A DNA stretch of 64,000 nucleotides, taken from NCBI GenBank assembly GCA_018417955.1, contig JACTVC010000021.1, positions 930,001 to 994,000 on the forward strand. The letters are read 5' to 3'. Each line of letters begins with the position of its first letter. Position 1 is the first letter of the stretch. Below the pieces are notes generated by a model, which saw only the letters and a program-made list of their open reading frames with translations, was not told the origin of the DNA and did no database searches. The translations under genes were made by a program, and so were the position numbers. Shown in pieces: positions 3,494-59,543 of the stretch. This stretch comes from Laccaria trichodermophora. Taxonomy: Eukaryota > Basidiomycota > Agaricomycetes > Agaricales > Hydnangiaceae.

Positions 3494-4657
3494 TGTGAAG
3501 CATTCACTCTGAACTTCTTGCATAGCTGAAGCCAAGAGGGAAGGAGGAGGCAAGAATGGGTGGATCTGGGATCAACACCCATAAGTGAGCAATGAGCAGT
3601 TACAAGATACTCAGCTGGCCCAACATGATTATGCATACTGTAGGAAGTACAGATATACAAAGCACTACATGTAGTGCAAGAGGATGGCAAGACTGCTGAC
3701 AAGATGGTGGTTCAAGACAAAAGATCAATATATTATGTAAGATATCCAAATAACCACTTAGCGCGCCTGCAGGCGCAAAACCCGATACCCAACTTTTCAT
3801 CACGTTGATCACAGTTGGTTTTTTCACTCACAGAGTTGGTAGTTTCGAGTCACCCTGCCATATAGTAAGTATTGTGTGGTGTACAAGGTCAATCACTGCA
3901 ACCTGTTCATTTCGTCAGCCACAGATTCAGTAGCTTCGAATCAGTGTGTTGTATAGTAACTGTTGGATGGTAAGTAACTCAGAGTGACCGTAGTTGCTAC
4001 TGAATCATGGCCACAACTAGTACTTAATCCTTTGGATGAATGTATAATTTTTCACTTCTACTTTGCTGCGATGTTCTTACCCACTCTTTGCACATCTATC
4101 TACTCTTTGGACCTCTATTTACTCATTGGACATCATTATATTGACTTCTACCAAACTTGTTTACTTAAAGAATATGATGGCATGCCACATATGCTGGCAC
4201 ACAACACCTCTTTCATGAGAAAAGGCCTCTGAATAAGGAAACTGTACACTGCCATCATCGTAAAAGCATTATTGTACATGCTGCCCAGAACGATCATTGT
4301 ACCAAAAGAACAAGGGCACAGAACAAAAGGTTATTGCCAGTGAACCCAAAGAGACGCCAAAGCCTGCTGAACAAACAAATGCAAAAGATCATCAAAAGTG
4401 CCAAAAATAGATGGGGAAATCGGGCAGAGCTGGGGGACAAACAACTGCAAAAGATCCTGAAAAGTGCTAAAAATAAGCAAACGACGACGGGAAGGGCTGA
4501 GATGGGTCACGAGAGGAACAAACAAGTACAACTTTGAAAATATTTTCTTTGAGTGAACCCAAGGGTGTAAGAACCCTCTACTAACGTATCGGGTATCTAG
4601 CTATATACCACTGTTTGACTATGGCCTCTGGGCATTCCCTTCCAATCCTATATCACA
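3494..4657. mobile_element. TG...CA repeat family, copy A (1164 bp)
   Basis: The segment starts TGTGAAGC and ends TATATCACA, with 5-bp direct repeats ATTTT on both sides (3489-3493 and 4658-4662). Its first ~254 bp and last ~62 bp match, in inverse orientation, the 319-bp copy at 41862-42180. The ~845 bp between them is present only here. TG...CA ends plus a 5-bp duplication fit a solo LTR of a retrotransposon; a TIR element (TGTGA/TCACA) is the alternative. The extra middle part is either an insertion here or a deletion in the other copy. Confidence 0.8.
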
Positions 4658-35049: not shown

Positions 35050-37539
35050 CTATTGCTAAGGAATTTTCAATCTTCGGCAAAACAAACATCTGAAGCCGCG
35101 GGTCTCCATCTTCAGTGACCTCTGGTTTCGTGATACTATCGATGGTGGCGCCTTCATTTGCTTTTCACCTCATCAACGTTCAACCCTGGAGATTTTCTTT
35201 TTCACTAGAAAACACATGTCGCGATCTCGGTTTTCAGAACAAAGTCCACCGGTTTCTCACTCTGAGGCTACCCAAAGGCTACTTTGTCTGGATCCGTTGC
35301 TTTCGCGACGGTCGCACTGATGATTAGATCTGGGTCGGGCTGTCGGACCCTCTTATTTTCCCCGCGATTTACATGAATCTGTAAGGTAAAGTATTTTGTA
35401 GGCTTTACGGTCTCACTTGCTTTTTCGCTCTCGCTGGGCTCTACACCGGAATCACGTTTTCCTACGGATGGAGCTGTTTACTCTGGCCAATATCACCAGA
35501 ACTACAAAGTCTAACTCCTTCCGATCTACTCTTCGCACCGCTTTTATATACCCAGGACTACGATCTGCACGCCACCATTTCCTTATTCCAAGTTTGTGGG
35601 TATTAGTTGGGCGCTGCTTGGAGGTGACTACCACAAAATACAAAGACCTTGTTCTTTGTGGAGATGATGAAAGAAAGGCCAAGTCCCCTATTCTATGTGG
35701 TTATGTTCATGACTTTCTTTCGAAGAATCTCTTGCGACGAATTTTCCAAACTGTTCTCGTGACGCCCAACTCTGAAGCTTCCTGTCCTCAATCCTCTGCG
35801 TTCTTGCAGCCAATGTACAATTTGCAAGCAACGTGCGCGCTATTATCCCTAGTTTCGGTACTTCAAACTTTACCCTGACTCTGAAAGTGGATTAATTAGC
35901 TCACTCTTCGACCAGTTAGAGCCAGTTAGCCGTTGTCGTTCTAGATTTATGTGCGTTATCTTTCAGCCGTTAATTCGTCGGTCCCTCAGTCTAGCTACTC
36001 TTTTGAGTCTTTCATGTCAAATTTGCACTCTGGAAATCTTCGTCGTCCTCTTTTGTTCTTAATTTCTGAAACAACGACCAACCTGAAGCAGGAAATCCAA
36101 TCTGTACCTTGAGGCACTGAATGTTATCATTGAACTCGGAACGCTCTTCCGTGCTCCAACATTCTAATTCAGAATCAGTTCTCTCAAGCCTTGGAACCGG
36201 TTACTATACGGAGTATGTATCATGCTGAGACCAGATCCATAAATCATGGACCCACAAGTATTCATCCAACCTTCCATGCCCCCCTTCTTTATAGAATGAG
36301 ACCAGTACAAGGCAGTCTCGTAGCCTCGTGCGGAGATGGTTGTCCTACGCCCACACTGAATCTGGGACCCACAAACACCCACCGATCGTGATCGGTGTCC
36401 GCCCTTGCGATATCATTAGACTCCTCGCCTATGAACATGCAACCTGCAATTTACTAATATAGGGAAGACGTCGACTTAACATCATATTGAAGACGATCGA
36501 GGAGACTGGTAGTCCTCTCGCGTCAGCAAATCCACAGCGATCCCAGAGCGATCCATGCCATGATCTACTCGGAAATTCCAGAATCGCCGTTGCGGTCACA
36601 TATAATAACCCAAAACTTTGAAATCATTCAAGTGAGTCGGCTAACGTTATAATGGTGATTGGATGTATGCAGAAGTACACTTGCCTTAGACGCCTCTCGA
36701 AAATATTCGCAAACGCGCATCCCAGTGCACCGCAAAATCTGAAGCTGCTGATGTAGATCGTTCTAAGATGTCCTCCAATTTTCATAACCTCCGAAAACGC
36801 TCCTCCCTCAACCATCGCACGTCCCTAGTATACCTTTCTTCACCTCAGGCCTCAGTATGGACGATTCGCCCGACTTATTGCCGACTCGCGGAGTCAATAC
36901 ATAGATTTCTCGAAATTTATTGGAATTTTACAAGTACTTCTTTCATGACGACATTATCAAGTTGCACCGACGGGGTAACTTGAACTTCGAAGGGTCGAAG
37001 AAACTCATAGGTGCCCCCATGATCATAAGAAACTACGCAGCGGCTCGTTGACCCGTTCTTTCATCGATATCGCATGATCTGAACGTCAACGCTGCAGATT
37101 ACAATTCATCAATAAACAATACCTGAAGTTCCAGGCAGTCACATATACGACAACTATGAATTCTTGAAAGCGTGGCCCTGGTCCAAAACCGAGGGGCAGT
37201 GGCGGCTTCTGTGAATTGAATGTGGGAAGGCGAAAGAAAAATGACGCAACAAGAGGGCGTTAAAGCGGGGACGTGTACGTGATAGGGGGAACGGAGCGCT
37301 GGTAAAGAAAGACAAAGTGGGGGATGGGGTTCATGTCAAAAGCGTCATGACAACGAGAGAGACGAAATGAACAAGGAGTAAAGTGGTCCACGACACAGAC
37401 GACGTCGAGGTTCAACAAGTTGATAATGAAAAGTGGGGCCAACGCCTGGAGGGATCAATACTCGATATCGATAATAAAGCACTAGGCAAACAAAGGTAAG
37501 CTCCCACTCATAGTTCAATCAAAGCTTCTAAAGCTGCTC

Positions 37540-38068
37540 ATAGAACCGCCCAGGAACCTTCGCCACCGCCGCCGCAATCCCACTCATTCCCTCGACTTTA
37601 GATGGTACATCCCTTTTCCCGATGGAACAGGCGACACCCCTGCCTTTCGAACTAGCCGAATTGCGCTGATGAGAGCAGGGAAGGTGTACTGTTCCTATCC
37701 CTAGGTGACGCAGGCAAAACTACACGGCCAGGTGAGCTAACTCCACCATAACGGGTGATGCGACTCGAGCTGTCGCATAGGGATAATGATTTCGAGGGCG
37801 ACGCCATCACGAGAGGATAATTGAGGATTATAAGTCATTCCTTGGGCTTGATATGGCGCGCTGAGGCTGATAAGCTTGTCCTTGCTGTGCTGTGAATGGG
37901 TCGTATACTGAGGGCCATAGGTCATGACCTGCGCCTGGCAAGGTCCCTTGCGATGGGTAAGTCAAACCCTGAGGGTGGTAGGTCGCAGCCTGAGAATGAT
38001 ACGGCTGAGTGGAGTGAGTCAGCCCCTTCTGCAGATACACCCCACTCTGTGGACGATACCCAACAAGC
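37540..38068 (-). pseudogene. Decayed 3' end of a PH-domain gene (duplicate of 56435-57280)
   Basis: The minus strand retains Gln/Tyr/Pro-rich fragments (YHPQGLTYPSQGTLPG and related) matching the C-terminal exon of the gene at 56435-59543, but stops and frameshifts break the frame. It is cut at 38068 by the KDZ element and continues at 53818. Confidence 0.8.
38061..38068. repeat. 8-bp target-site duplication, left copy
   Basis: CAACAAGC here is repeated exactly at 53818-53825. With one copy and the sequence between them removed, the flanks rejoin into a sequence colinear with the intact gene near 57060. Confidence 0.7.
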
Positions 38069-38195: not shown

Positions 38196-38442
38196 TGGTC
38201 CCCTTCCTTCCGCATTTGGGGCGCCTCGGGCCACTACGGCTTGGCTTTGACAGGGTACAGTCGCGGACAGACAAAGTCGACAATTTTGATAACTTGGCAA
38301 CCAATGAAAATTTCGGCAATTTGACTTCAGAATTGTGATCAACTCGACGAAATACGTCGAAAAACACATCTTAGAAGTTTTTCCCACGAGCCATTAAATT
38401 GGCCAAAATTTTGACCAAAACCAATGACATTCTATATACCTA

Positions 38443-39112
38443 CAGTCGCGGACAAACAAAGACAACAAATTTGATATCTCAGACCCAGCCAATATTTCGG
38501 CAATATTTTTTCAGAATCTTGATCAGCTCGTCGAAATACGTCGAAAAACACACCTTCGAAGTTTTTCCCACGAGCGGATGTGTTCCGCCAAATTTTTGGT
38601 CAAATATGTAGCCCCAATTCAGGGTCCTAGGTGACCAAATTTACCTCAAAGTGGCTCACGATGGAGTTGATTTTCTGAAAATGATTTGTGTGTCAGCAGC
38701 GGCGCCTTTGGCCACTGTAATTCCGGTAAACACTCTTCAACTAAGACTTAAGGGTCTCCGAAAGGCACCGAGCGGGCCCTGATTACCGATCAATTTCTAT
38801 TTTAGGTCATTCTTTTCGAATTTATTTAGCCAAAACGGCTCGACAGAACCTTCCAATATTACAGGATCATTTGCCTCTCATCAAAAGCAGTCGATTGCAC
38901 TATTTTTCATGATTTTTAGACCAATTCTCACGGTCCTGCCAAATTTTGAGGGCCTAAAAACCTTATTTGGAAGTTTATGAGGGAACGGCTCGATAAAATT
39001 TGATAAAATTGGTATTGTTGGAATCGTCTCATCAATCCGCGTCGATTAAGACTATTTTCGAAGAATTTGGTAAACTTTGATATTTTTTGTTGACTTTGTT
39101 TGTCCGCGACTG
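38443..39112. mobile_element. Tc1/mariner-like MITE with a duplicated left end, 670 bp
   Basis: The ends are inverted repeats CAGTCGCGGACAAACAAAG, flanked by TA at 38441-38442 and 39113-39114. A second left end (CAGTCGCGGACAGACAAAG) with ~180 bp of similar sequence lies just outside at 38258-38440, also preceded by TA. So the left end is tandemly duplicated or a second truncated copy is nested. No transposase. Confidence 0.75.
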
Positions 39113-39824: not shown

Positions 39825-42800
39825 TCATCCCTCTGGTACCCAATAATTTGGCTTCCTAACTTCACGGCCACTTCGAGACTTACGACTGCCCTCTGGCTCC
39901 TTACCGCCCTCTGGCTCCTTTCGCTTCTTTCCTGACCCCTTAGACCCCTTCTCACTGACCCCCTTTCCGTTACCTAGTGCTTCTTCCGCCTCGCGTTTTT
40001 TGCGAGCCCTAGTAAGAGCTGCTTTCTCATAGCGGGTCAGCTCAGTCAAAGGTGCGTGATTTTCCTTATCGCTTGGGCCATCACCCAGGGGAGGTGCGGG
40101 GGTCATATTGTTGGAAGGTGTCGCATCGGTGCTACTGGAAGGAGCAGTGTTAGCACTGGCAGATATAGGTGTGTGAGTGGTTGTGCCGGGAGCAGATTCT
40201 GTATCGCCATTGCAAGCATCACCACCACCGGAGAGAAGAGAGGCATTGACGCCAGGCTTCTTGATGGGTCGTGGTCGTGGTCGTGGTCGAATCTGACGAT
40301 GTTCTTGGGTTGCACTGTCTGAGGATGCCAAATCGGCGTTGATGGCTGCACCATGGATGGTGTAGTTAACCGTAGTGGAAGCCTCTAAATTGAGTGGTGC
40401 TGAAGAAGGGGGGGATGAAGGAGGTGGAGTAGGGGTAAGTGCGGAGGCTGGCGCTGAAGGTAAAGGGGTTTTGGGAGGTGATGCGCTAGATGGATTGACA
40501 GTGCGACCCAATGTGAACGGATTGATTGGGGCACGGCCAAAAACACGGGGATCGGATGCGAGGGTTGCAAATGGGTTGTTGAGGTCGCTCCTCTCCTGTG
40601 TCGTGACAGCTAAAGGCTCGCGTCGGGGAGGTGTTCTCTGAAACACAAACCCAGGTGCTGATGCTAATAAAATCCCAGCAGTTGATGCTGGTTTCCCCAT
40701 ATTCTCCATATAAAGGAGAGGATCGATGAAGGGATCACGAAGGGGAGAAGGTGAGGAAGCAGGAGGAGGAGGAGTTCGCCTTTGAGCGAAGAGTGATTGA
40801 TCCATTCGGGCGAAGGCATGCGAGATAGGCGATGATGGCGCACCTGGAGCCAATGGTAAGCCGTTCACCTCCACTGATGACCCACCTGACATTGGAAATC
40901 TCTTCTCACTCCCTTCAATAGAATCAGTCGAGACTGTTCCTCCAAAAGCAGCATCCAACCCTCCATCTTGATTGTCGTTCCAGGCACTGCCAGTGCTGAG
41001 GGAAATATCATCGCCAGGAGCTTCGAGAGTCTGGCCTGAGCAGTATCGATCGAGGGCTTGTTTTCGTGGAGAATGAGCAGGAGTGGCCAGAGATGAGCTG
41101 TCAAGAACCGGGGGAGCGTCCAGCGGCAGTGCGCTCGACGTTGGTAATAGTGACGAGTCAGGTTCCAAAGAAGGCCCAGAACTTTCACGGAGGTCAGGCC
41201 CGATTGATGGCATCATTTCAATGGAAGGCGATTCAGATCTTGGCATGGCGATCAGGGTTTTGGCTACGTCACTATCAAGGATAGGTTGGGTTTTGGCTAT
41301 GTCATTATCGAGGATAGGACGTCCCGCTCCCGCGAAGCTGAAAGCTCTTTCCTGACAGACTTCTGGTGCTGAAACAGTTTTGAGTCAAACATACACAAAG
41401 AAATTCTAACGGTACTTACGAAAAGCATTTCGAACAAATTGCGAAAATGGCAGGGCGAAGCCTTTTTTAAATCCTGTGTAAGCTTCATGGAAGTCTCTGC
41501 CGCCATCACTCTTTGGCCCAAAGTAGTAGCTATGAAAGGGGTGATTAATAAAATAACGTTGAAGAAAACAAGAGAATGACAGACTCGTGTTGATATACTG
41601 TCCCTCCAGCTTTTGGAAGTGGACCAGCGCATCCAATAAAAAATGCCCAGCCAGTCGATGCGCACAAGCAGTTAAAAATCTTGTCGAGGACATCGGGCAG
41701 TTCATCTATTGCCCTAAGAGGATGCAACAGCGTCAAATTAAAATACTCGCAATTACAGTGCGCTAAATCGCCTACTTTTGGAAATCCTCAGGATTTTTCT
41801 CTACCTCACAACTGTCGTCCACGCCGTCACCTTCTTTACCATCCTCAGAGTCCTGACCGCCTGTGATATAGGATTGGAAGGGAATGCCCAGAGGCCATAG
41901 TCAAACAGTGGTATATAGCTAGATTTGGATATCTTACATAATAGATTGATCTTTTGTCTTGAACCACCACCTTGTCAGCAGTCTTGCCATCCTCTTGCAC
42001 TACATGTAGTGCTTTGTATAACTGTACTTCCTACAGTATGCATAATCATGTTGGGCCAGCTGAGTATCTTGTAACTGCTCATTGCTCACTCATGGGTGTT
42101 GATCCCAGATCCACCCATTCTTGCCTCCTCCTTCCCTCTTGGCTTCAGCTATGTGAGAAGTTCAGAGTGAACGCTTCACACCGCCCTTCTGCTTGAGACA
42201 CTCAGCAGCTACTTCAGCCTTCACCTCTTCCGACTCAGCACTAAATAGAGTAGCCCTTACACTCTTGAAGAGAATAAGGTGCTCTCCTGGTAATGCTGAT
42301 CAGACCATTTGTTAATTAAACATTGCAATAAAATACTCACCTTGAGAAAGTTTCCCTCCAGATTGGTCAGCCTTGGCTGCACTGACCGCCTCTCGAACCT
42401 TCTCCGCATACAACTTGCCATAAATTTCGGCCGCGTTCAAATTCCGGGAGCGCTTGTTCTTCACTAAGCTCTGCATCAACATATTTGAAAATACAGAGCT
42501 ATCAGAGGAGCGCTTGTATCCCCGAGCGTTCCAGTTGAACCAATTTCTGAGTTGCTAAAAGGGGCGTAAGTTAAGTGAATTCTAGTACCGCAATGAAATT
42601 TTACTTACTTTCTTTCTAGCCTTTATGGCATCACGAAGTTCATCCTCCTGTGGTGGGGTAAGAACTGCTGACGGCTCACCGGCCGCTGTTGGAAAGAGAG
42701 CATTGCGTTCAGGATATTTCTCAAACCAGCCTTCAGCGATGTGTGAGTGAAAGCGCGCGACCATTGATTTCTTCTGCGCTTCAGTGAACGCTGGAATATG

Positions 42801-42848
42801 GGATTCGAGCCATTTCTTTTGCTCATTGGTTATAGAAGATTTTCCCAT
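39825..42848 (-). CDS. 813-aa protein of a transposon-associated agaricomycete family; one intron is a mobile repeat
   Basis: Seven exons (42848-42609, 42554-42341, 42286-42182, 41860-41776, 41713-41570, 41529-41420, 41368-39825) join in frame to 813 residues. The start MGKSSITNEQKKWLESHIPA opens a family motif (EQKKWLE...F...WFEKYPER), followed by RNWFNWNARGYKRSSDSSVF and GEHLILFKSVRATLF; such proteins are numerous in mushrooms and of unknown function. The last ~470 residues are Ser/Pro-rich and disordered, with a basic end (KREAEEALGNGKG, GREVRKPNYWVPEG). Intron 3 (41861-42181) coincides with a mobile repeat. Intron 5 is only 40 nt with a weak GTTTTC donor, so that join is the least sure. 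Confidence 0.65.
41862..42180 (-). mobile_element. TG...CA repeat family, copy B (319 bp), serving as an intron
   Basis: Bounded by TGTGA and TCACA and by perfect 5-bp direct repeats CCGCC (41857-41861 and 42181-42185). It is homologous over its full length to the outer parts of the copy at 3494-4657. On the gene strand, the donor GT is made of the last base of one target copy plus the first base of the repeat. The acceptor AG is made of the last base of the repeat plus the first base of the other target copy. Splicing restores the frame with one extra Gly codon. Confidence 0.85.
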
Positions 42849-47131: not shown

Positions 47132-48954
47132 ATGAAACCAAGCACCTTCAAGGGCTTCGACCCCTCCATTGTAAGTTTTCTTTGCATGCTCTTTCGTCAC
47201 TAAATACTTATGACACTGTTTACAGAGTTTCGAACCCTGCACTGTAAGTATATGCAGCGTCACCCCTGTATCTACATGCTAACATCATTTACTTAGACGC
47301 GATCCGGCCGGAAATTCTCTTGCCTCCTGGATGCCGTGTCAAGTGGCATGGAGATGGCGAAACTCTTCTTCCGCGCTTTCAAGAGGGACGATGTCCGCGG
47401 CGACAACGGAGACAGCGACGTTGAGGACGACGACGACGACGACGTCACAACTTTCCTCACACACACTCCACCTCCACCCATCACACCTCCACCCACAACA
47501 CCCATCAACTCTCGATATCAAACACGTCTCACCACACGTCGCACACCTCCACCCATCACACCTCTACCCACAGCACCCCTCAATGCTCGATATCAAACAC
47601 GTCTCACTACACGTCGCACTACTGCCGCCCCTCTTGGCAAGATCGAAAAAGTTCGCAGGAAGGATCGTAGCCGACTGCGCCGCTCGGAATCCAAAGCCAA
47701 GCAGAAGCTGCTCCACCCCAATCGCATTGCCTTTCGACCTCGTTTTGCCGCCGCTGAACGTCTCATCATCACTGGGATGAAGATGAAGTTTGATACCGCA
47801 AGGCTACGTGTCTCAAACAATTGTTGGATTGCGCTACGCAAGAAGCCAACCAAAAAGTCTCAGTGGATGGTCAATGAGTTGAAAGGGAGGGGATTTGACG
47901 TACTCACGTGGGATGCGAGGTAAATTTCACATTTCGTCCTGCATGACACCCGCTAACTGATTGTCAACAGTAACCCGAAGGTTGTGCTTGATGTTGCCAA
48001 CCGTATCATCGTCCCACTCGCAGGCAGGCCGCAGGGCGAAGACTGGGACCAGGTCATTCGCGATGCCACCGCTGCCATGAATGCGATCCGCGTTCGTGGT
48101 GAGCAGCTTGGCATCTTTACCGAGGGAGACAAGGAACATCGACGCGGTGACTTCACACCTGTGACCTCTGGTGTATCATATGGTGGTGGGCAGACAGTAA
48201 GTCAAATTTTTGACTTGAAACACATCGATACTAACCATGCGTTATAGAGACCTGGAAATCTTCGCCTTACTAAAGCGAAACAAGGACTTGTTGATGAACT
48301 CCGGGATAATCCTGCCATTCAGCGCGTCGCTGGATGGCAATCATGTAAGTTCCATGATCTACAATGCTAATGCTTCATCTGATCGTCCCCTCCTTAGGCG
48401 CTTTCGCCATTTACGCTCCAAAACTCTTTGACGAATATCGCAATTTATTAAGCGAACTATTCGACCACGACCCAACTTTCATCCACAACTTCGAAAAGTC
48501 CATATTCACTGCATCAACGTTCAACTTGGGCCCCAATACAATCACCCTCGATCATACCGATTCCGCCAACGTCGCTCACGGTCTTTGCGCGATCACGGCG
48601 CTTGGCAACTATGACTACACGCTTGGTGGTCATATGATTCTCTTCGATCTCAAACTTATCATTGAATTCCCTCCCGGCTCCACTATTCTCATTCCTTCGG
48701 CAGTTCTTCGGCACGGTAGCACGCCTATCCAGCCAGGTGAAACTCGAATGTCATTCACTCAGTTTGTTGCTGGCGGCTTGTTCCGCTGGGTGAGGTACGG
48801 TTTCAGGACAGAGGATCAACTTATCCTTGCTGAGGGTGAAGAACGCTTGTTGGAGATTAATGGTAACTATGCTGAACGTTGCGAGAGGGCGCTCAATCTC
48901 TTTTCGAAGCTGTCTGAGTTAAATGAGGATCGTCGACGTGTATTTGCCAAGTAG
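47132..48954 (+). CDS. TET/JBP-type 2-oxoglutarate/Fe(II) dioxygenase
   Basis: Six exons (47132-47170, 47226-47243, 47297-47919, 47971-48196, 48248-48344, 48398-48954) give 519 residues. The last exon has the double-stranded beta-helix of this superfamily: metal ligands H387 and D389 (TLDHTDSAN), H440 (AVLRHGSTPI), 2-oxoglutarate Arg R451 (GETRMSFTQF), plus FNLGPNT and FPPGSTILIPSA. Upstream, VSYGGGQTRPGNL and YAPKLFDEYRNLL are family hallmarks. TET/JBP enzymes oxidise 5-methylcytosine or thymine in DNA; the call rests on motif order, so another 2OG branch is possible. The N-terminus is acidic and contains two ~27-residue repeats (RYQTRLTTRRT). It sits upstream of, and co-oriented with, the KDZ transposase. 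Confidence 0.7.
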
Positions 48955-49603: not shown

Positions 49604-52600
49604 ATGCCTCCCAAACGGAAATGCTCCGAGCCACGCCCTGCAGAGCTTTCGGATGACGAGGATCCTGACACTCAGCCCACCACCACAATTATCACTCCCG
49701 TCCTTCAATTCACCCAACGCGTTAATCGACATGGTCACCACGCACTCTCAGTAAATACCAAGCATGTACAATTTGAAGTAGAACAACAAGAAACTTGTAT
49801 GCCTTCAGTCGACTTTCCTACCAGCTATCCCAATATCAGTGATGATTCCACAACCCTCCCAAATCTCTCTTCTACAATGGACGATGCTTTCGCAGAGCTT
49901 GCAGCCATAGACCCTGCCTATTTTGATGCATTGAGTGACGACCTCATTTCTGTAGGGCCGCGAAAAAAGAGACCTTCAGTACGCCATTGTATTTCATTCT
50001 ATTTCAAGGCTAATTTCAATTTAATTAAAGGATTACCCATTGAAAGAATGGATCAAGGATAGCGATGTGTTTCTGGAGGAAGATATTCGGTGGGAAGGGA
50101 GGGGGGAGTACATGATGGAAAACTGTTGTCAGTGCTTGAGCTCTGAGACACTGTATAGGTGCCAGGATTGCGAAGGGGGGGAGTTAATTTGTCAAACATG
50201 CATGGTTGATTACCACCGAGCCAACCCACTGCATCGCATCCAGGTGTGTTCTTATCTTTATACCTCCTTCTACAGTTAATCAATCATCATAGGAGTGGAC
50301 GGGTTCTTTCTTCAAACCAACAACACTTAAAAAACTGGGGCTACGAATTCAACTAGGTCACCGACTCAGAGAACGTTGTCATGTACCACAACCCGCATGG
50401 AATAATGACTTCGTTGTTCTTGATACTACAGGCATTCATGAAGTAGGATTGGACTTCTGTAATTGTGAACGCGCACAAGATCATTTTATCCAACTTCTCC
50501 GATTCCGATGGTTTCCGGCCAGTGTCAAAAGTCCCAAGACTGCAGTGACTTTTCGCTTGCTCAAACACTTTCAAATCCTCAGCTTCGAATCGAAGGTTTC
50601 AGCGTTTGAATTCTACACAGCTCTGGCACGTGAAACGGAAAATATAGGTATATCACCTTTGAAGGTGAGTCTTTGGTCAACTAAAAAATAATTCGTTCAT
50701 TGAGTTTCTACAGGATCGTTACCGACCTTTTATGCGAGTTGTACGCCAGTTCAGATATATTAAGATGCTAAAGCGCGCTGCTCGAGGGCATGATCCTGGT
50801 GGCATTACTGCCACACGTCCTGGGGAATGTGGGGTCTTGTGTCCAGCATGTCCCCAGCCAGGTAAGAATCTTCCGGAAGGATGGCAGGATGCGCCTCCCG
50901 AATTACGGTAAAGGTTTCATCAACAACTCGCATAATAAATAAAACTTACTTTGCGAGAACAGATTCCTCTACTGCTTGTTTCTCGCTATTGATGCCAACT
51001 TTCGATTGAAGCGGAAAGCGGTGTCAAGCGATGAAGCAGACCCCAGCCTTCTGGATGGAAAAGCTTACTTCGTCGCAGAGAAAGACTTCAAGAACTACCT
51101 GAAGGAGTTTGGAGATCTCATCATCCAGGAGGCGAGTACTTGATGATTTCGTCCTCCCCCTTCTGAATTCTTATTTTTCTGACATAGCCCAGTACATGTT
51201 CGAATCACAATGCAGTTAATGCTGAGCGATCGTCAACTGGACTCGCTGCAACTGGTGTCGGCACCATTGATTGCTCAAGACATGACATCAAGCGACCAAC
51301 TTCAGTTGGAGATTTACAGAAGGGTGAACGGCATGTATTGGATTCTACTCCTATTATATCATATTTGACTCATTCCTGATCAATAGATACGTCAACATGG
51401 ATTACCTTTTTTTCAGTAGTCTCAAACACAGTGATGTCATGGAGATCGTCGTCTCATATGATATTGCATGTCAATGGAGCAAGAACTTGTGGAACCGAAT
51501 GTCATCTTACCCTCACTGGATGCACGTCGACCATGACGGTGAGAAGCAATTTCACTTCCTCGTCCCTAAGTTCCACCTTCCCGCACACATCATGGCCTGT
51601 CAAACCATATTCTCATTCAACTACAACCGCAATGTGGGCCGCACTGATGGTGAGGCGCCTGAACGAGGGTGGTCACATATCAACCCCATCGCAACAAGTA
51701 CGCGTGAAATGGGCCCAGGCTCACGTCGAGACACCCTTGATGATCACTTCGGGGCATGGAATTGGAAAAAAACCAAATTAATGGGTGCTCTCTTTATCTC
51801 TTTATTATGGTTCGCTAAACTAACACGTCAATCTATTAGGCCCAACCCTGCTTCGAAAAATTAAACTGGCCGTCGTTGGCATGAATGACCATGTCTTTCT
51901 TCATAATCAATTTGTTATCGGCATTGCGGACGACGATCTTGTTCAAAAATGGGAGAAGGAACTCACAGATTGGGAAGAAGATCATAAAAAACCCAACCCG
52001 TTTGAGGCATCGTTTAAAAGTATGTCCACTCAGTAAGCATCCGAGTTGTGATCTCATCTGCTCCCTCAGAGGTTACCCTGGATTCAGTGAAGCACCAACT
52101 TGCCCTCACAGAGGCTGCGGAGCTGGCATCAGGAGTGGCCTACATACTCCATGAGGACATCTCAGCGAGCATGATGCTCACAATGGGCATGGATTTTGAG
52201 ATTCAAAAGTGCGTTCATCTTAACCCTTTCACTACATGGTATTATTTGTACTTACTTCCCTTCTCATTAGACGTCGCCTGAAGGTAGACATAGATGCGTT
52301 GGGCCTTCATGCTACAGATGACCAGAAAAGGAAGATACAGATTCGCGCCACTACTCTGCAGCGCAAAATCTTTTCTTGGATGGACGTTCAGCAGCTGTAC
52401 ATGCCTAGCGCTCGCATTGCCCGATTGGAGGCCCAGGAGCACAGTGATCATGATGCAGAGGAGAAGGTTGAGGATATCGAGCTCTGGCTACCATCTGTAC
52501 TGCCGAAGAAACACTCATGCGACATTCGACTACGACAGATGGAATGGAGACTGCGACAGGCTCAAGCAAATGACGCCCTTGATGAACTCCGGAATTCCTT

Positions 52601-53806: not shown

Positions 53807-53817
53807 AACTACAGGTG

Positions 53818-54150
53818 CAACAAGCGAAGGCCACATAATCGGCACCGCATCCCGCCCTCAGTAAAACTTGCGGTGACTCTCAGTTGATTCTCCTCGTAGC
53901 ATGCGTCGCCTAGAACTCCTCGTTTGCGCCTGCCAACCGTGCGTAATGCTGCCTCTCCTCTTGCTCAGTCGTGTAAATCCCACTATGAAAAGAAAACACA
54001 CCTAAGAAGACACCGGTCAACCACCCTCATAAACCGCCGCCTCAGGGTCTTGTGGATCCCCAATCGAACTACGGACCTTGTTCTTCATAGTCTAGGCGGA
54101 CCTGGAAGACAAGAGAAGAGAGATGAGTGATGGTAGGATCGGAATAAACC
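53818..54150. repeat. Direct duplication, copy 1 (right part), with right target duplication at its start
   Basis: It begins with CAACAAGC (53818-53825). From there it continues the alignment with the PH-domain gene that broke off at 38068: CACATAATCGGCACC against CCCATAATCAGCACC at ~57.08 kb, then TGCCAACCGTGC and ATGCTGCCTCTCCTCTT (53.93 against 57.17 kb), and finally ACACACCTAAGAAGACACCGG (first 20 bases match the region at ~57.47 kb with changes). Confidence 0.8.
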
Positions 54151-54279: not shown

Positions 54280-57110
54280 TAAGGGGTTTTCAATCCTCGG
54301 AAAAATCTACATTTGTCTCTGCGGGTCTTGATCTCTCTGGTTTCGTAATATCACTATCGATGGTGGCTTCATTTGCTTTTCAATCTATCAGCGCATCAGC
54401 CCTGGAGACTGACTATCTTGTCTTCTTCACATGTCGCGATCTTAGTTTTCAGACAAAATCCACCTGTTTTTCACTTTGAGGCTGCCTTGTAAGTTGTCTA
54501 GATTCATTGCTTTTGCGAGGGTCAGCTACTGATTAGATCTGGGTCGTTCTCTGTCTGGCCGCTTAATTTCGTAGGTTCTAATCACACCCATTTCTTTGCT
54601 CTCGGTAGGTTCAAACTGGAATCAGGTATTCCATCGGTCTGGAGCTGATTACTCTGGCCAGTATGTCACAGGACTAGTACAAACTCTAACTCCTTCCGAA
54701 TCACTCTTCGCGCCGCTTTTCCTCTGCGCACCACCGTTTCCTTATTTCGTTGTGCGCTGCTTGAAGGTGACTATTGCCAACCTAAAGCCCTTTTTCTGGA
54801 GATGAGAGATGAAGGAAGAAAGGCTAGGTCTCTGCCCCTCCGAATAGGTGTTCTACACTTTGCCGAATTAATTATGATAATTCATCGCCTTCTTCCAAAG
54901 AATCTCTTGCGAACAATTTGCCAAACTGTTCTCGTGACTCCCAACCCTGAAGCCTCTTGCCATCATCCTCTCCGTTCCTTGATCAGGCTGCAGCTAATCT
55001 GCAATTTGCGACCAACGTGCGCGCTACCATCCCTCTTCGACCAGTAGCCGTCTGTAGTCGTTCTAAAGGTACGTGCGTAATCTTTTAGCCGTTATTTTGT
55101 CAGTCAAAATGACTTCATTATCTAGTTTTTGAAAGAAATGATCAACCTAAAGCAAGAATCACAATCTGTACCTTGAAGCACTGAATGTCATCATTGCGCA
55201 GGACTCGGAACTCTCTTCCGTGTTCCAACATGGCAATTCCAGAATTTTTTTACTCAAGCTTTGGAATCAGTTACTATACGGGGTATGTATGCCTTATCTA
55301 TTTTGTCATGTGGGCTGACACCATTTTCTATAAACCCATAAATCATGGACCCACAATCCGCCCCCTTCCACGATCCCCTTCTGCATGTAACAGGAGACTC
55401 ATACAGCGGTTCAGATGTTTCTCGAATTACCACTGTATCAGAACTCGTAGCTTCGTGCACTGACGGTAGACCCACATGCTGAATCTGGGACCCACAGACA
55501 CCCACATGATTGTGATCAGCATCCGACAACTGCTCGCCCACGAATACGACTTGTTACCGCAAAGCAAAGTCCTTTAAAGTCGGACGAATCAAAGTTCAGT
55601 TTGATATAATAATAATTCAAGTAATATCCAGCGAAGCTCGAAAACATTCACAAACGCACCCCTGGCGCACCGCAGAATCCGAAGCAGCTATGCAGATCGT
55701 TTTACGATGTCCTACAATTTTTTACAACCTCCGAAAACCCTCCTCTCGCAACCATCGCACGACCCTACTAGTAGCATACGCTTCTCCAACTTGTCTTGCG
55801 ATGAGTTCAGGGTAGAGGATTCGCCCGACTCATGCCGATTCGCGGGGTCAGTACATGTAATATATGTGGTACATCTCTCGTAATTTGCGCTTCTTTATGG
55901 ATGACTCATTATCAAGTTGACAGCGCACCGGCTCTTCGTCCCGTACTTTCAACGATATCGCATCTGATCTGAACTCTAACGCTTCAAATGAGCATTCAAT
56001 ATTCATTAGCTAAAGTACAAGGTAGAGCCCATTAATATAGAAACGGGGGGCTAAAATACAAGGTAAGAGGCGGCAGCGCTCACGTTTTGAAAGCGAGTGG
56101 CGGCTGATGTGAATTGAATACGGGAAGGCAGGAAGAAGAATGACGCAACGAAAACGGCGTTAAAGCGGGGAAAGTGTACATGATAAGGAGGAAACGGAGC
56201 GCTGGTGGAGCCTGGTGCTCGAATTAAGAGGGGAAGGTGGGAAAGGATCGGGTTAATGTCAAAAGCGTTATGACAACGAGAGAGACAACGTAAAGTAGGT
56301 CCACGACACGGAAGACATCGAGGTTCCACGAAAAGTACTTAAGGGGGAACACCTGAAGAGATCGATCAACGTCAATAACGGGCCACTAGGCAAACGAAGG
56401 AAAGCCCACCGCTCAGATGTTCAATCAGAAACGTCTAAAACTGCTCATGGAACCTTCCAGGAACCTCCGCCCTCGCCGCCGCCGCCGCACCTCCATTCCC
56501 GGTTTTAGACGGTACAGGCGACGCCGCCCCCCTCCCAGCCGACGGAACGGGCGACGACACACCACCCTGTCTCCCCACTCCCGAACTCACCGAATGCGCA
56601 GGGGAGGAGAGCGGCGCAGGAGCGCCGTTCCTTCCCCTAGATGGCGCAGGCGAAACGACACGGCCTGGTGAGCCAGGTCCAACTGTGCTAACATGGTAGG
56701 GCGATACGGCTCGAGCGGGAGAACCATGGTAGGGTGATGCGGCTCGAGCGGGGGATCCGGTGGGATAAGGAGAATGACCTCGAGGGGGAGAAGCAACGCC
56801 TTCACGAGAGGCTGCTGCGTGAGGGTAGGTTGTCCCTTGAGCTTGGTACGGCGCGCTTTGAGACGGATAAGTTTGTCCTTGAGTCGTATACTGAGGCTGA
56901 TAAGGCGCCTGGTGAGTCGTCGTCCCCTGCGATGGGTAAGTCGAACCCTGAGGATGATACGGCTGAGCGGGATAAGTCGACCCCTGTTGCTGATGCTGAT
57001 ACTGCGGCTGGTACGTCGCACCCTGTTGTTGGTACGCCCCACTCTGCGGACGATATCCAACAGGTGGAGGAGCCCCATAATCAGCACCGCCGCCTCCCCC
57101 GCCCCCAGTA
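54280..57110. repeat. Direct duplication, copy 2 (parental side)
   Basis: Counterpart of 35050-38068 in the same orientation. It comprises ~2.1 kb of non-coding 3' flank and the last exon of the PH-domain gene. Short frames in 54.3-55.5 kb occur at matching positions in both copies but are not conserved as protein. Confidence 0.8.
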
Positions 57111-59543
57111 ACATTCGTGGTGACTCTACCCGTATCGTGCGTCACCACACCCCCATTACCCGTCGTCCCTGTCCCTGCCAACCGTGCATAATGCTGCCTC
57201 TCCTCTTCCTCAGTCGCGTAGATCCCGTTATCACCATCGTCTACACCGGGTTCAGCACTGATGGCATGTTCTTCGTGGGGCTATGGTGAAAAAAAGGCGT
57301 TAGTTGTGTTTGTGGCGTTTATGGAACTGAGATGGAATGCGGACGAAGGGGTGGCGGAGAATGGAGGAACCATAGCGAGGAATAGAAGGTGGAAATGGAC
57401 GTCAACCCAAATCCAACACCCAACAACCGCCAAAAAAAACGCCATCCACAACCCAAGAAAACAAAAGACACACCTGATAAGAAACCGGCCTCGCACCCTC
57501 CTGCGCCTGCGCCTGTACTGGGGGCTGATACGACCCCCGATCAATCGTCGGGCCCTGTTCCTGTTCTTGCTCTTGATATTGCCTCGCCCCCACATCGCGT
57601 GAAGTCCTAGCTTCAGCCTCACGAGGTCCTCGGCCCTCTGGTGCTTTTTCTTGACGTCTGCTTAGTCTTCGGGAGATGGATGTCTTTTTGTCGAGCTATG
57701 ATGGATTAGGAGGATGTGTGGCATGAAGGAAAGAGAAACGTACAGGATACCCATGAGGCCCCATCTCCATCGCACCTACTCCTCCCTGAGCGTAACCCGG
57801 AGGCGGAGCCCTCTGCTCCTCCTGCGCATCCTGATACTCATCAACACCCTCCCCCTCCTCCTCCTCAACACTACTCCCCTCCCTCTCTCCCTCCTCTTCC
57901 TCCTCCTCTTCCTCCTCACCACCACTAATGTACCCCGCACTCCTAACAGCAGCCTCAACAGGCCCACTCCTCTCAAGCTGCTCACTAGCAACAAGATACC
58001 TTGCACACAACATCCTTATATCATTCCACCACTCCATCATCTCATCCCGACTCCTAGCACGGAAACTCCACGCCTTGTTACTCTCCCCCTCCTTATTCGC
58101 TACCCCAATCATACTGCGCAACCCACCGCCTTTAGTCGTCCCCGTGCCTTCCTTCCGTCCCTCGATATGGAACTTGTGGCTCTTGCTCTTGATGGTGCTA
58201 GGGGGGCCTAACGTGCACGACGACAGGAACAAAGAGAAGGAGGGGATTTGACCCGCGGGGGTGGTAGGATCGGACGAAGCAAACTCGTGCAAGAACCCAG
58301 CGGGGGTGAGGACAAAGTAATTCTCATGATAAGCCCTTGTGAACCGTTTCTTCCGCTCCAAATGGCCCGTGTGCACGGAAACGACGCACGGGTCGTCTTT
58401 CAATGGCCATGTGACGCTTTGCGTTGTCCGCATGGGAGTTTCGGGGTCCAAGAGGTGGTCGGAGCGCGCGGCGAAGGCGATCCATTCTCTGTCGGGCGTA
58501 AGGGAGGCCATGTGTGCGGAGAGGGATTGGAAGAGGGCTTGGGATTGGACCGAGGCGCGGGATTGCCATTCTTCGAAGGTGTTCCAGGCGGATTGGATGG
58601 AGCGGACGATGCCGAGTTCGAAGGCTGCGCTGTTTTGTTGGGTCATGACGAGGGATTTTTGGAGCAGGTTTTCTTCGAGGACTTGGCGCTGCATTTGGCG
58701 GGCTACAGCTGCGTTGGTTAGGTACCTATTATGGATGAGTAAAAGCTTTGAGGATGAAACAGAACGTACGGGTCTTGACGAGCTTGAACCATCCCCGGGG
58801 TGTTCTTGAACGTCGAGATGTGGTTGGCGAGATCACCAAGGAGCTTCTCGGAGACTTCGCGTTCTTTGGCCACGTTCTGTGCCAGCTTGGCTGTGTCATT
58901 TTGCACATTCTGTTGTGGAGTAGGTGAGTATTAGTCAGGCAAGTGAAACGTCTGAGTCTGAACCTTTATATGGGCTTTGATCTCCGTGGTGAGTTTCTGA
59001 AGATGAAGGACGATTGTACCCTGGATCGTGCGGCCGAGGTCGGCATGGTGGTCAGCAACGATGCGTGATTTGTCTCGGATGGTGTAGAACACGTCCTGCG
59101 GATTGAATAGTGAATATGACGAATTGAATAGATGGTTAGAACGTACCTGCAGTCCTCCTTCACCAAGGAACTGATTTCCAGCTCGGAAAGGGACTTGAAT
59201 GACGCCAGCGAGCTTCATCATGTCCCTTGCCGTGTTATTCTCGATTTCAGCAATACCCTGCGCAGCAACGTGAGATGGCCATTCAATCCACAGCGAATAA
59301 AACAAAGCGTACCTCAAACCAAGCAGTAAGCTGCCTAACGATAGCCTTCCAAGCCGTGAACCGTTCAATGAGGACATCGGCAGGCTTGAGGTCATGCATC
59401 TCAATGCTCCTCTTGATGAGGCTCTGGTGACGAGAAAGCGTCGACGTGCGCGAGGTGCGCGACGTCGCGCGGGACAGCGGGGCCCCCTCTGTCTGTTGCA
59501 CGGCGTTTTGGTTGTTGTTCATTCTTATTGGGGAGTGATACAT
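56435..59543 (-). CDS. PH-domain protein of the Slm1/Slm2 type
   Basis: Seven exons (59543-59313, 59257-59147, 59095-58964, 58909-58770, 58725-57744, 57695-57474, 57280-56435) join in frame to 887 residues. Residues ~50-350 are long helices (DLKPADVLIERFTAWKAIVR, GTIVLHLQKLTTEIKAHI, NVQNDTAKLAQNVAKEREVS) like an F-BAR-type dimer. A PH domain follows (GHLERKKRFTRAYHENYFVL...LGPPSTIKSKSHKFHIEG...EMMEWWNDIRML). Yeast Slm1/2 bind PtdIns(4,5)P2 at the plasma membrane and relay TORC2 signalling; the same role is inferred here. A Glu-rich stretch and a long Gln/Pro/Tyr/Ser tail complete the protein. The ATG at 59522 is an alternative start. Its 3' end is duplicated at 37.5-38.07 kb. Confidence 0.85.

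What the first reader, a model, noticed from the sequence alone, without database searches (positions are those of the whole stretch)
41857..42185. A mobile repeat that became a spliceosomal intron (introner-like event)
Seen: a 319-bp repeat with TGTGA/TCACA ends and a perfect 5-bp target duplication (CCGCC) lies inside an otherwise open gene. On the gene strand, the donor is the last G of one target copy plus the repeat's T, and the acceptor is the repeat's A plus the first G of the other copy. Splicing removes 321 nt, keeps the frame and adds one Gly codon. The gene's other introns are about 40-62 nt. A longer copy with its own 5-bp duplication at 3.49-4.66 kb shows the repeat is independently mobile. 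Known: introner elements use target duplications to build splice sites. Inferred: this family can insert as ready-made introns. The ends also fit a solo LTR, which would make this an LTR-derived intron and less usual.
Basis: partly seen in the sequence, partly recalled or inferred. Interest (0 to 1): 0.92.

Follow-up and report, generated by a model that had tools for sequence, protein, structure and literature searches.

The report
Solo LTR posing as an intron
In what is likely a Laccaria mushroom genome, a leftover end of one jumping element sits in a protein-coding stretch of a second jumping element, and its ends plus the copied target bases spell the letters of intron borders, so the cell would be able to cut it out of the RNA as an accidental intron; no RNA was examined.

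Summary
Window 41862-42180 is a 319-nt LTR (TGTGA...TCACA) with a perfect CCGCC duplication, inside an exon of a minus-strand gene. Five of five close paralogues have the empty site with a single GGCGG. Removing GT...AG (321 nt) keeps the frame and adds one Gly.

Three things change the reading. (1) The repeat is a solo LTR of a young retrotransposon, about 3.9 kb, with no gag-pol found in the one copy searched; 8 of 8 full-length copies examined have 5-bp duplications. The "longer copy" at 3.49-4.66 kb is the same LTR with a nested insertion of about 843 nt. (2) The host gene is cargo of a 15.75-kb Kyakuja (KDZ) transposon. (3) Keeping the frame is arithmetic: TG...CA ends plus a 5-bp G...G target always add 3 nt.

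G...G or C...C borders occur in 17 of 49 copies counted as solos, and other copies break ORFs with no such option on the coding strand. So this is likely one accidental, intron-shaped insertion, not an introner family. Splicing is untested; length and branch site are poor, and an internal GTAAGA donor competes.

The parts
41862..42180 (+). solo LTR, 319 nt, LTR-sense on + (antisense to the host gene)
   Evidence: sense inferred from the PPT-like tract before the 3' LTR of full-length copies
41857..41861 (+). target duplication copy 1 (CCGCC; GGCGG on the gene strand)
   Evidence: single copy in 5 of 5 close paralogues
42181..42185 (+). target duplication copy 2 (CCGCC)
41861..42181 (-). predicted 321-nt intron, GTGTGA...TCACAG
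   Evidence: splicing not tested
39825..42848 (-). host gene: 808-aa frame if the LTR is spliced out; other introns 42555-42608, 42287-42340, 41714-41775, 41530-41584, 41369-41419
   Evidence: intron choice follows annotated L. bicolor protein P0001
38068..53817 (+). Kyakuja (KDZ) DNA transposon, 15,750 bp, CA...TG ends; no inverted copy of the left end found at the right end
   Evidence: KDZ, CxC2 and weak Tet_JBP matches
38061..38067 (+). 7-bp target duplication CAACAAG of the Kyakuja element, left
53818..53824 (+). 7-bp target duplication CAACAAG, right
48358..48954 (+). Tet_JBP-like oxygenase exon (weak: E 0.0017, 18 bits against a cut-off of 34.9)
50293..50691 (+). CxC2 cysteine cluster exon (E 1.6e-45)
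51328..51864 (+). KDZ transposase exon (E 8.6e-44)
3494..4657 (-). second LTR copy in the window, split by a nested insertion; ATTTT 5-bp duplication

Best explanation
A solo LTR of a young LTR retrotransposon sits in an exon of a cargo gene of a Kyakuja DNA transposon, its TG...CA ends and the flanking G...G target copies spell GT...AG, and the spliceosome would likely remove it from at least some transcripts as an accidental intron. Steps: a full-length element of about 3.9 kb inserted at GGCGG (inferred from family anatomy); LTR-LTR recombination left one 319-nt LTR (inferred; solo state shown). The last G of one target copy and the LTR's T make the donor GTGTGA; the LTR's A and the first G of the other copy make the acceptor CACAG (shown as letters). 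With a 5-bp duplication, splicing there repeats the three middle target bases, so the frame is always kept and one codon is added, here Gly (arithmetic, shown). Actual splicing is predicted, not shown; I read it as an accident of geometry, not an adaptation of the family.
For: Exact empty site in 5 of 5 close paralogues. 8 of 8 full-length copies examined have 5-bp duplications, LTRs differing at 0-1 sites, and near-constant PBS-like and PPT-like flanks. 305 matches to the LTR's first 39 nt genome-wide, up to 3 mismatches. Donor GTGTGA keeps GTRNG; the acceptor has a pyrimidine-rich lead CATTCCCTTCCAATCCTATATCACAG. Read on through the LTR, the frame meets TGA six codons in (sequence). The gene is under constraint between the more distant copies: in 310 codons, 17 synonymous against 5 non-synonymous differences for C14 versus C45. 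Precedent: at least one exonic insertion of the LTR element ONSEN removed as an intron in Arabidopsis; the other intronised cases named in the passages lay in existing introns (PMC12112155, passages).
Against: No RNA. 321 nt against 51-62 nt for the gene's other introns. The nearest YTNAY branch match lies 40 nt from the acceptor. A GTAAGA donor at position 244 of the predicted intron with the same acceptor makes a 77-nt intron of ordinary size that would leave 244 nt with a stop in the mRNA. The LTR is identical to other copies, so it is young and selection has had little time to show that the gene still works. Between the two closest copies, C14 and C24, differences are 4 synonymous and 4 non-synonymous, no sign of constraint; C24, without the LTR, has a shortened frame (706 aa), so an open frame here says little.
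Confidence: 0.5

Rival explanations
1. The solo LTR simply breaks this copy of the cargo gene. GT...AG borders are a coincidence and the transcript retains the LTR, or is cut at internal sites, giving a protein truncated soon after KGG.
For: G..G or C..C borders are common in this family: 17 of 49 copies counted as solos, 4 of 17 (the focal one included) in a sample not chosen by flanks. Long predicted intron, distant branch match, competing GTAAGA donor. Other copies break ORFs outright. A broken cargo gene in one of six related element copies would probably cost the host little.
Against: The borders meet GTRNG and YAG with a pyrimidine-rich lead; the rest of the 808-aa frame is undamaged in this copy, though the insertion is young.
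Confidence: 0.42
2. Introner family: the LTR element has evolved to spread as ready-made introns in many genes.
For: Symmetrical ends TGTGA/TCACA give donor GTGTGA and acceptor CACAG in either orientation; at least 19 copies in the genome have G..G or C..C borders; 17 of the 18 other such copies show 5-bp duplications.
Against: No second copy shown in a coding exon on the compatible strand; of 6 sites with ORFs of 140 aa or more among 24 solo sites tested, 5 have no GT-AG option on the ORF strand and the sixth (L066) is open in all six frames. By a rough estimate no clear excess of compatible borders once the G/C preference at the duplication's end is allowed for (letters shown for 27 of 49 rows). 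Many copies are ordinary paired LTRs (8 pairs examined). The ORF test would miss genes with short exons.
Confidence: 0.05
3. An old spliceosomal intron that was later filled or replaced by the LTR.
For: None found.
Against: 5 of 5 close paralogues and the annotated L. bicolor protein read straight through this point as exon.
Confidence: 0.02
4. Assembly error that placed a repeat into this gene copy.
For: The LTR is a high-copy, near-identical repeat.
Against: Perfect 5-bp duplication at the join, matching the family's rule; the LTR is present once and whole.
Confidence: 0.01

Closest known systems
Solo LTR of a non-autonomous (LARD-like) LTR retrotransposon
   Same: TG..CA ends, 5-bp duplications, paired LTRs with PBS-like and PPT-like tracts, no gag-pol found in the copy searched; three LARD families, one with recent near-identical copies, are reported in Laccaria bicolor (PMC3411680, passages)
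   Different: Whole element about 3.9 kb; not matched by sequence to a named family
Introners (intron-generating transposons)
   Same: Target duplication contributes to the splice sites; sharing sites partly with the duplication and adding codons are both described (PMC9860276, section 7)
   Different: Described there with TSD/TIR signs of DNA transposons or, in ascomycetes, without them, and with many intron copies per genome; here one candidate, an LTR, and no RNA proof
Intronised LTR retrotransposon insertions (ONSEN in Arabidopsis; retrotransposon alleles of maize waxy are recalled, not read)
   Same: LTR element in an exon removed by splicing (PMC12112155, passages)
   Different: ONSEN is full-length; here a solo LTR whose exact termini plus the target duplication would make the borders
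TET-bearing Kyakuja transposons of Laccaria bicolor (host of the insertion)
   Same: CA..TG ends, 7-bp duplication, KDZ transposase, a weak TET/JBP match (definition from PMC12730594, passages)
   Different: Carries the 808-aa cargo gene, which the passages seen do not describe

Membership tests
LTR retrotransposon (solo LTR) | TG..CA ends | tested here: met
LTR retrotransposon (solo LTR) | constant short target duplication | tested here: met
   5 bp in 8 of 8 full-length copies and in 18 of 19 G..G/C..C copies; L070 lacks it
LTR retrotransposon (solo LTR) | same repeat as direct pairs around an internal region with PBS and PPT | tested here: met
   8 pairs, internal 2,925-3,245 nt, ATGGTGGGGGCAC after the first LTR in all 8 and GGACATTGGGGGGCTT (one G fewer in L052) before the second; the primer tRNA was not identified
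LTR retrotransposon, autonomous | gag-pol coding capacity | tested here: not met
   one copy (L053): longest ORF 183 aa; 4 of its 8 listed ORFs searched, no Pfam match above cut-off
Introner family | many near-identical copies that are introns of different genes | tested here: inconclusive
   1 candidate; no gene shown on the compatible strand for the other compatible copies, but most flanks were about 350 nt and genes are intron-rich
Introner family | splice sites made by element plus target duplication | tested here: met
   letters only
Introner family | removal shown in mRNA | not testable with these tools
   no RNA data held
Kyakuja (KDZ) transposon (host of the insertion) | CA..TG ends, 7-bp duplication, KDZ transposase | tested here: met
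   definition from PMC12730594; Kyakuja against Dileera or Zisupton was not tested by a tree
Kyakuja (KDZ) transposon (host of the insertion) | TET/JBP gene | tested here: inconclusive
   Tet_JBP E 0.0017, below the Pfam cut-off, single exon

The most novel reading that the evidence does not exclude
LTR elements with TG...CA ends and 5-bp duplications carry a built-in frame-safe intron rule: wherever they land in GNNNG on the coding strand of an exon, element plus duplication form a complete GT-AG intron whose removal adds exactly one codon (a copy of NNN), whether full-length or solo, in either orientation. This solo LTR would be a live case in a basidiomycete, caught while still identical to LTRs of its full-length relatives.
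Probability: 0.3. Interest if true: 0.68.

Novelty: new member of a known kind. Interest (0 to 1): 0.36.

Why it matters
If the exact 321-nt junction exists, it shows a retrotransposon LTR making a complete spliceosomal intron, with the empty site preserved in five sister copies. It also gives a simple rule (TG...CA, 5-bp duplication, GNNNG target) that predicts which LTR insertions in exons stay harmless; this can be tested in any genome with RNA-seq. If it does not exist, the case is a caution: intron-shaped borders and a kept frame come free with this geometry.

Tried and rejected
Rejected: the longer copy as a parent form (it is the same LTR with a nested insertion); an old intron at this place; an ordinary cell gene as host; my first gene models with introns of 38, 69 or 88 nt, replaced after the annotated L. 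bicolor protein P0001 was seen.

Led nowhere: script attempts at exon borders of several paralogues failed on regular expressions or a donor one base off; paralogue C8 never parsed and is left out of the codon counts (C14 and 4 paralogues used). Pfam on pieces of the host gene gave nothing above cut-off. Ten literature searches showed no Laccaria LTR intron in the listings or in the passages I opened; the library lacks most journals. Gozashti 2025 on functionally diverse transposons as intron sources was not held; only its title was seen, in a reference list, so LTR introners may already be described there.

Rows dropped: L070 from the empty-site test (no duplication); L027 and L028 show the same two sites, counted once. 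L071, L072 and L074 are one insertion copied within a larger repeat but stand as three in the counts of 19, 24 and 49.

Not done: a splice-site weight matrix from this genome, for lack of a set of proven introns; a fold of the cargo protein, as it does not bear on the question.

Full report
What is there. The 319-nt repeat at 41862-42180 lies between two perfect CCGCC copies, in an exon of a minus-strand gene. On the gene strand the borders read GTGTGA...TCACAG over 321 nt.

It is an insertion. Searches of the window's own genome (59.0 Mb, 77 contigs) with the two flanks found five close paralogues, on C24, C56, C45, C15 and C8, plus one distant copy on C15. In the alignment all five close ones run through the site with a single GGCGG and no insert. 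An annotated Laccaria bicolor protein, P0001, also reads straight through (KGGQ). It is 94.6% identical to the spliced reading of this copy, so the genome is likely a Laccaria; the best match of P0001 in this genome is 96%, so it is not evidently the same strain.

The repeat is an LTR. A DNA search scored 40 of 335 candidates, these 40 being 99-100% identical; a pattern for its first 39 nt has 305 matches with up to 3 mismatches. Eight pairs examined are direct repeats around 2,925-3,245 nt, each with a 5-bp duplication outside, 0-1 differences between the two LTRs, a PBS-like start one base after the first LTR and a PPT-like GGACATTGGGGGGCTT (one G fewer in L052) before the second. That gives the likely sense strand: the LTR lies antisense to the host gene. 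One copy's internal region (L053) has no ORF above 183 aa, and 4 of its 8 listed ORFs have no Pfam match above cut-off: apparently non-autonomous, LARD-like. The focal LTR is identical to one LTR of each of two full-length copies on C16, and 1-12 differences from the other 21 distinct LTR sequences collected. So it is young.

The second copy in the window (3494-4657) has its own ATTTT duplication, but it is the same LTR with about 843 nt inserted between two T's; the insert starts ACCCGATAC and has GTATCGGGT and a GCGCCTGCAGGCGC hairpin near its other end. This looks like a short Helitron2/Helentron-type element (features recalled, not tested).

The host gene is mobile cargo. Homology among copies starts at the same place on the left (38068; six other copies) and ends on the right at 53817-53818 in most copies, 53824 in C45. 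The piece between starts CA, ends TG and is flanked by CAACAAG, 7 bp, on both sides. It encodes CxC2 (E 1.6e-45), a KDZ transposase (E 8.6e-44) and a weak Tet_JBP match (E 0.0017, below cut-off). CA..TG ends without TIRs and 7-bp duplications are what PMC12730594 gives for TET-bearing Kyakuja of L. bicolor (passages). The cargo gene changes slowly in protein between the more distant copies: over 310 codons C14 and C45 differ at 17 synonymous and 5 non-synonymous sites; C14 and C24, the closest pair, at 4 and 4.

Why the frame is kept. If a 5-bp target G1N2N3N4G5 is duplicated around TG...CA, the donor takes G5 of the first copy and the acceptor takes G1 of the second. What remains is G1N2N3N4N2N3N4G5, three bases more than the empty site, always. 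Here GGCGG becomes GGCGGCGG and adds Gly. So the kept frame follows from the class of element and does not argue for selection.

How often by chance. Genome-wide, 6 copies have G..G and 13 have C..C borders by exact pattern. Of these 19, 18 show a 5-bp duplication and L070 does not. A pattern for 319-nt copies that excludes the outer bases of paired LTRs (T before, A after) finds 49, taken here as solos without checking each; 17 of them are G..G or C..C (the two of other length left out; three of the 17 are one insertion copied in a larger repeat). The pattern also leaves out real solos with those outer bases, so 17 of 49 overstates the share among all solos. In the 27 rows whose letters were shown, the base before the LTR is C in 15, G in 10 and A in 2. 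With such a preference about a third or more of the 49 is expected without any link to splicing (my estimate by symmetry). In a sample not chosen by flanks, 9 solos and 8 full-length copies, 4 of 17 are G..G or C..C, the focal one included; about half would suit a given coding strand. One compatible insertion in a gene is therefore no surprise.

Are other copies introns? I tested the open frame across the empty site at 24 solo sites (18 of them have G..G or C..C borders, 14 having been fetched for that). Six have 140 aa or more: L006 (438 aa, no Pfam match), L018 (855 aa, Chromo E 2.2e-10 and a sub-threshold Tf2-like SH3, a Ty3-like pol), L069 (235 aa, Integrase_H2C2 E 1e-17), L073 (170 aa, no Pfam match in the piece searched), L065 (149 aa) and L066, open in all six frames. 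In the first five the ORF strand has no G..G, so those insertions break the frame; L066 is G..G on the LTR-sense strand but its open frames look like low complexity. This test would miss genes with short exons, as the focal one shows (67 aa on the gene strand), so it does not exclude other cases.

Is it spliced? For: GTRNG donor, CACAG acceptor, pyrimidine-rich lead. Against: 321 nt versus 51-62 nt for the five other introns of the gene; branch match TTGAC 40 nt upstream; a GTAAGA donor at 244 that makes a 77-nt intron with the same acceptor. I put exact removal in at least some transcripts at about even odds, and as the main form lower.

Known ground. Introners that take splice sites wholly or partly from their target duplication, and some that add codons, are described (PMC9860276, section 7). 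In Arabidopsis new ONSEN LTR elements were removed as introns, in the passages seen mostly where they lay in existing introns and at least once from an exon (PMC12112155, passages). A solo LTR using its exact ends would be a small variation on these, and is worth more if RNA shows it.

Noticed in passing
window 3752-4594: Insertion of about 843 nt nested in the second LTR copy, between two T's, with ACCCGATAC near one end and GTATCGGGT plus a GC hairpin near the other: Helitron2/Helentron-like by recalled features, non-autonomous.
   Followed up: partly
window 38258-39112: About 854 nt present in this Kyakuja copy and absent from the five close copies; ACAGTCGCGGACA and TGTCCGCGACTGT at its ends look like the terminal inverted repeats of a small DNA transposon.
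   Followed up: partly
window 39825-42848: 808-aa cargo gene of a Kyakuja transposon, no Pfam match above cut-off in the pieces searched, constrained in protein between the more distant copies: function unknown.
   Followed up: partly
L050 (C15:506500-516400): The distant Kyakuja copy has about 4.3 kb between its matches to residues 80-154 and 148-216 of P0001, so another insertion lies in or near intron 2.
   Followed up: no
window 35706-38036 and 54881-56994: Diverged duplicates (76-85%) lie on both sides of the Kyakuja element, close to a PH/BAR-domain gene at 57696-58832; the element may have landed in one copy of a tandem pair.
   Followed up: no
C6:30505, C19:249878, C49:63858 (L071, L072, L074): Three solo LTRs share the same duplication and flanks: they were likely copied with a larger repeat, so copies are not all independent insertions.
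   Followed up: no
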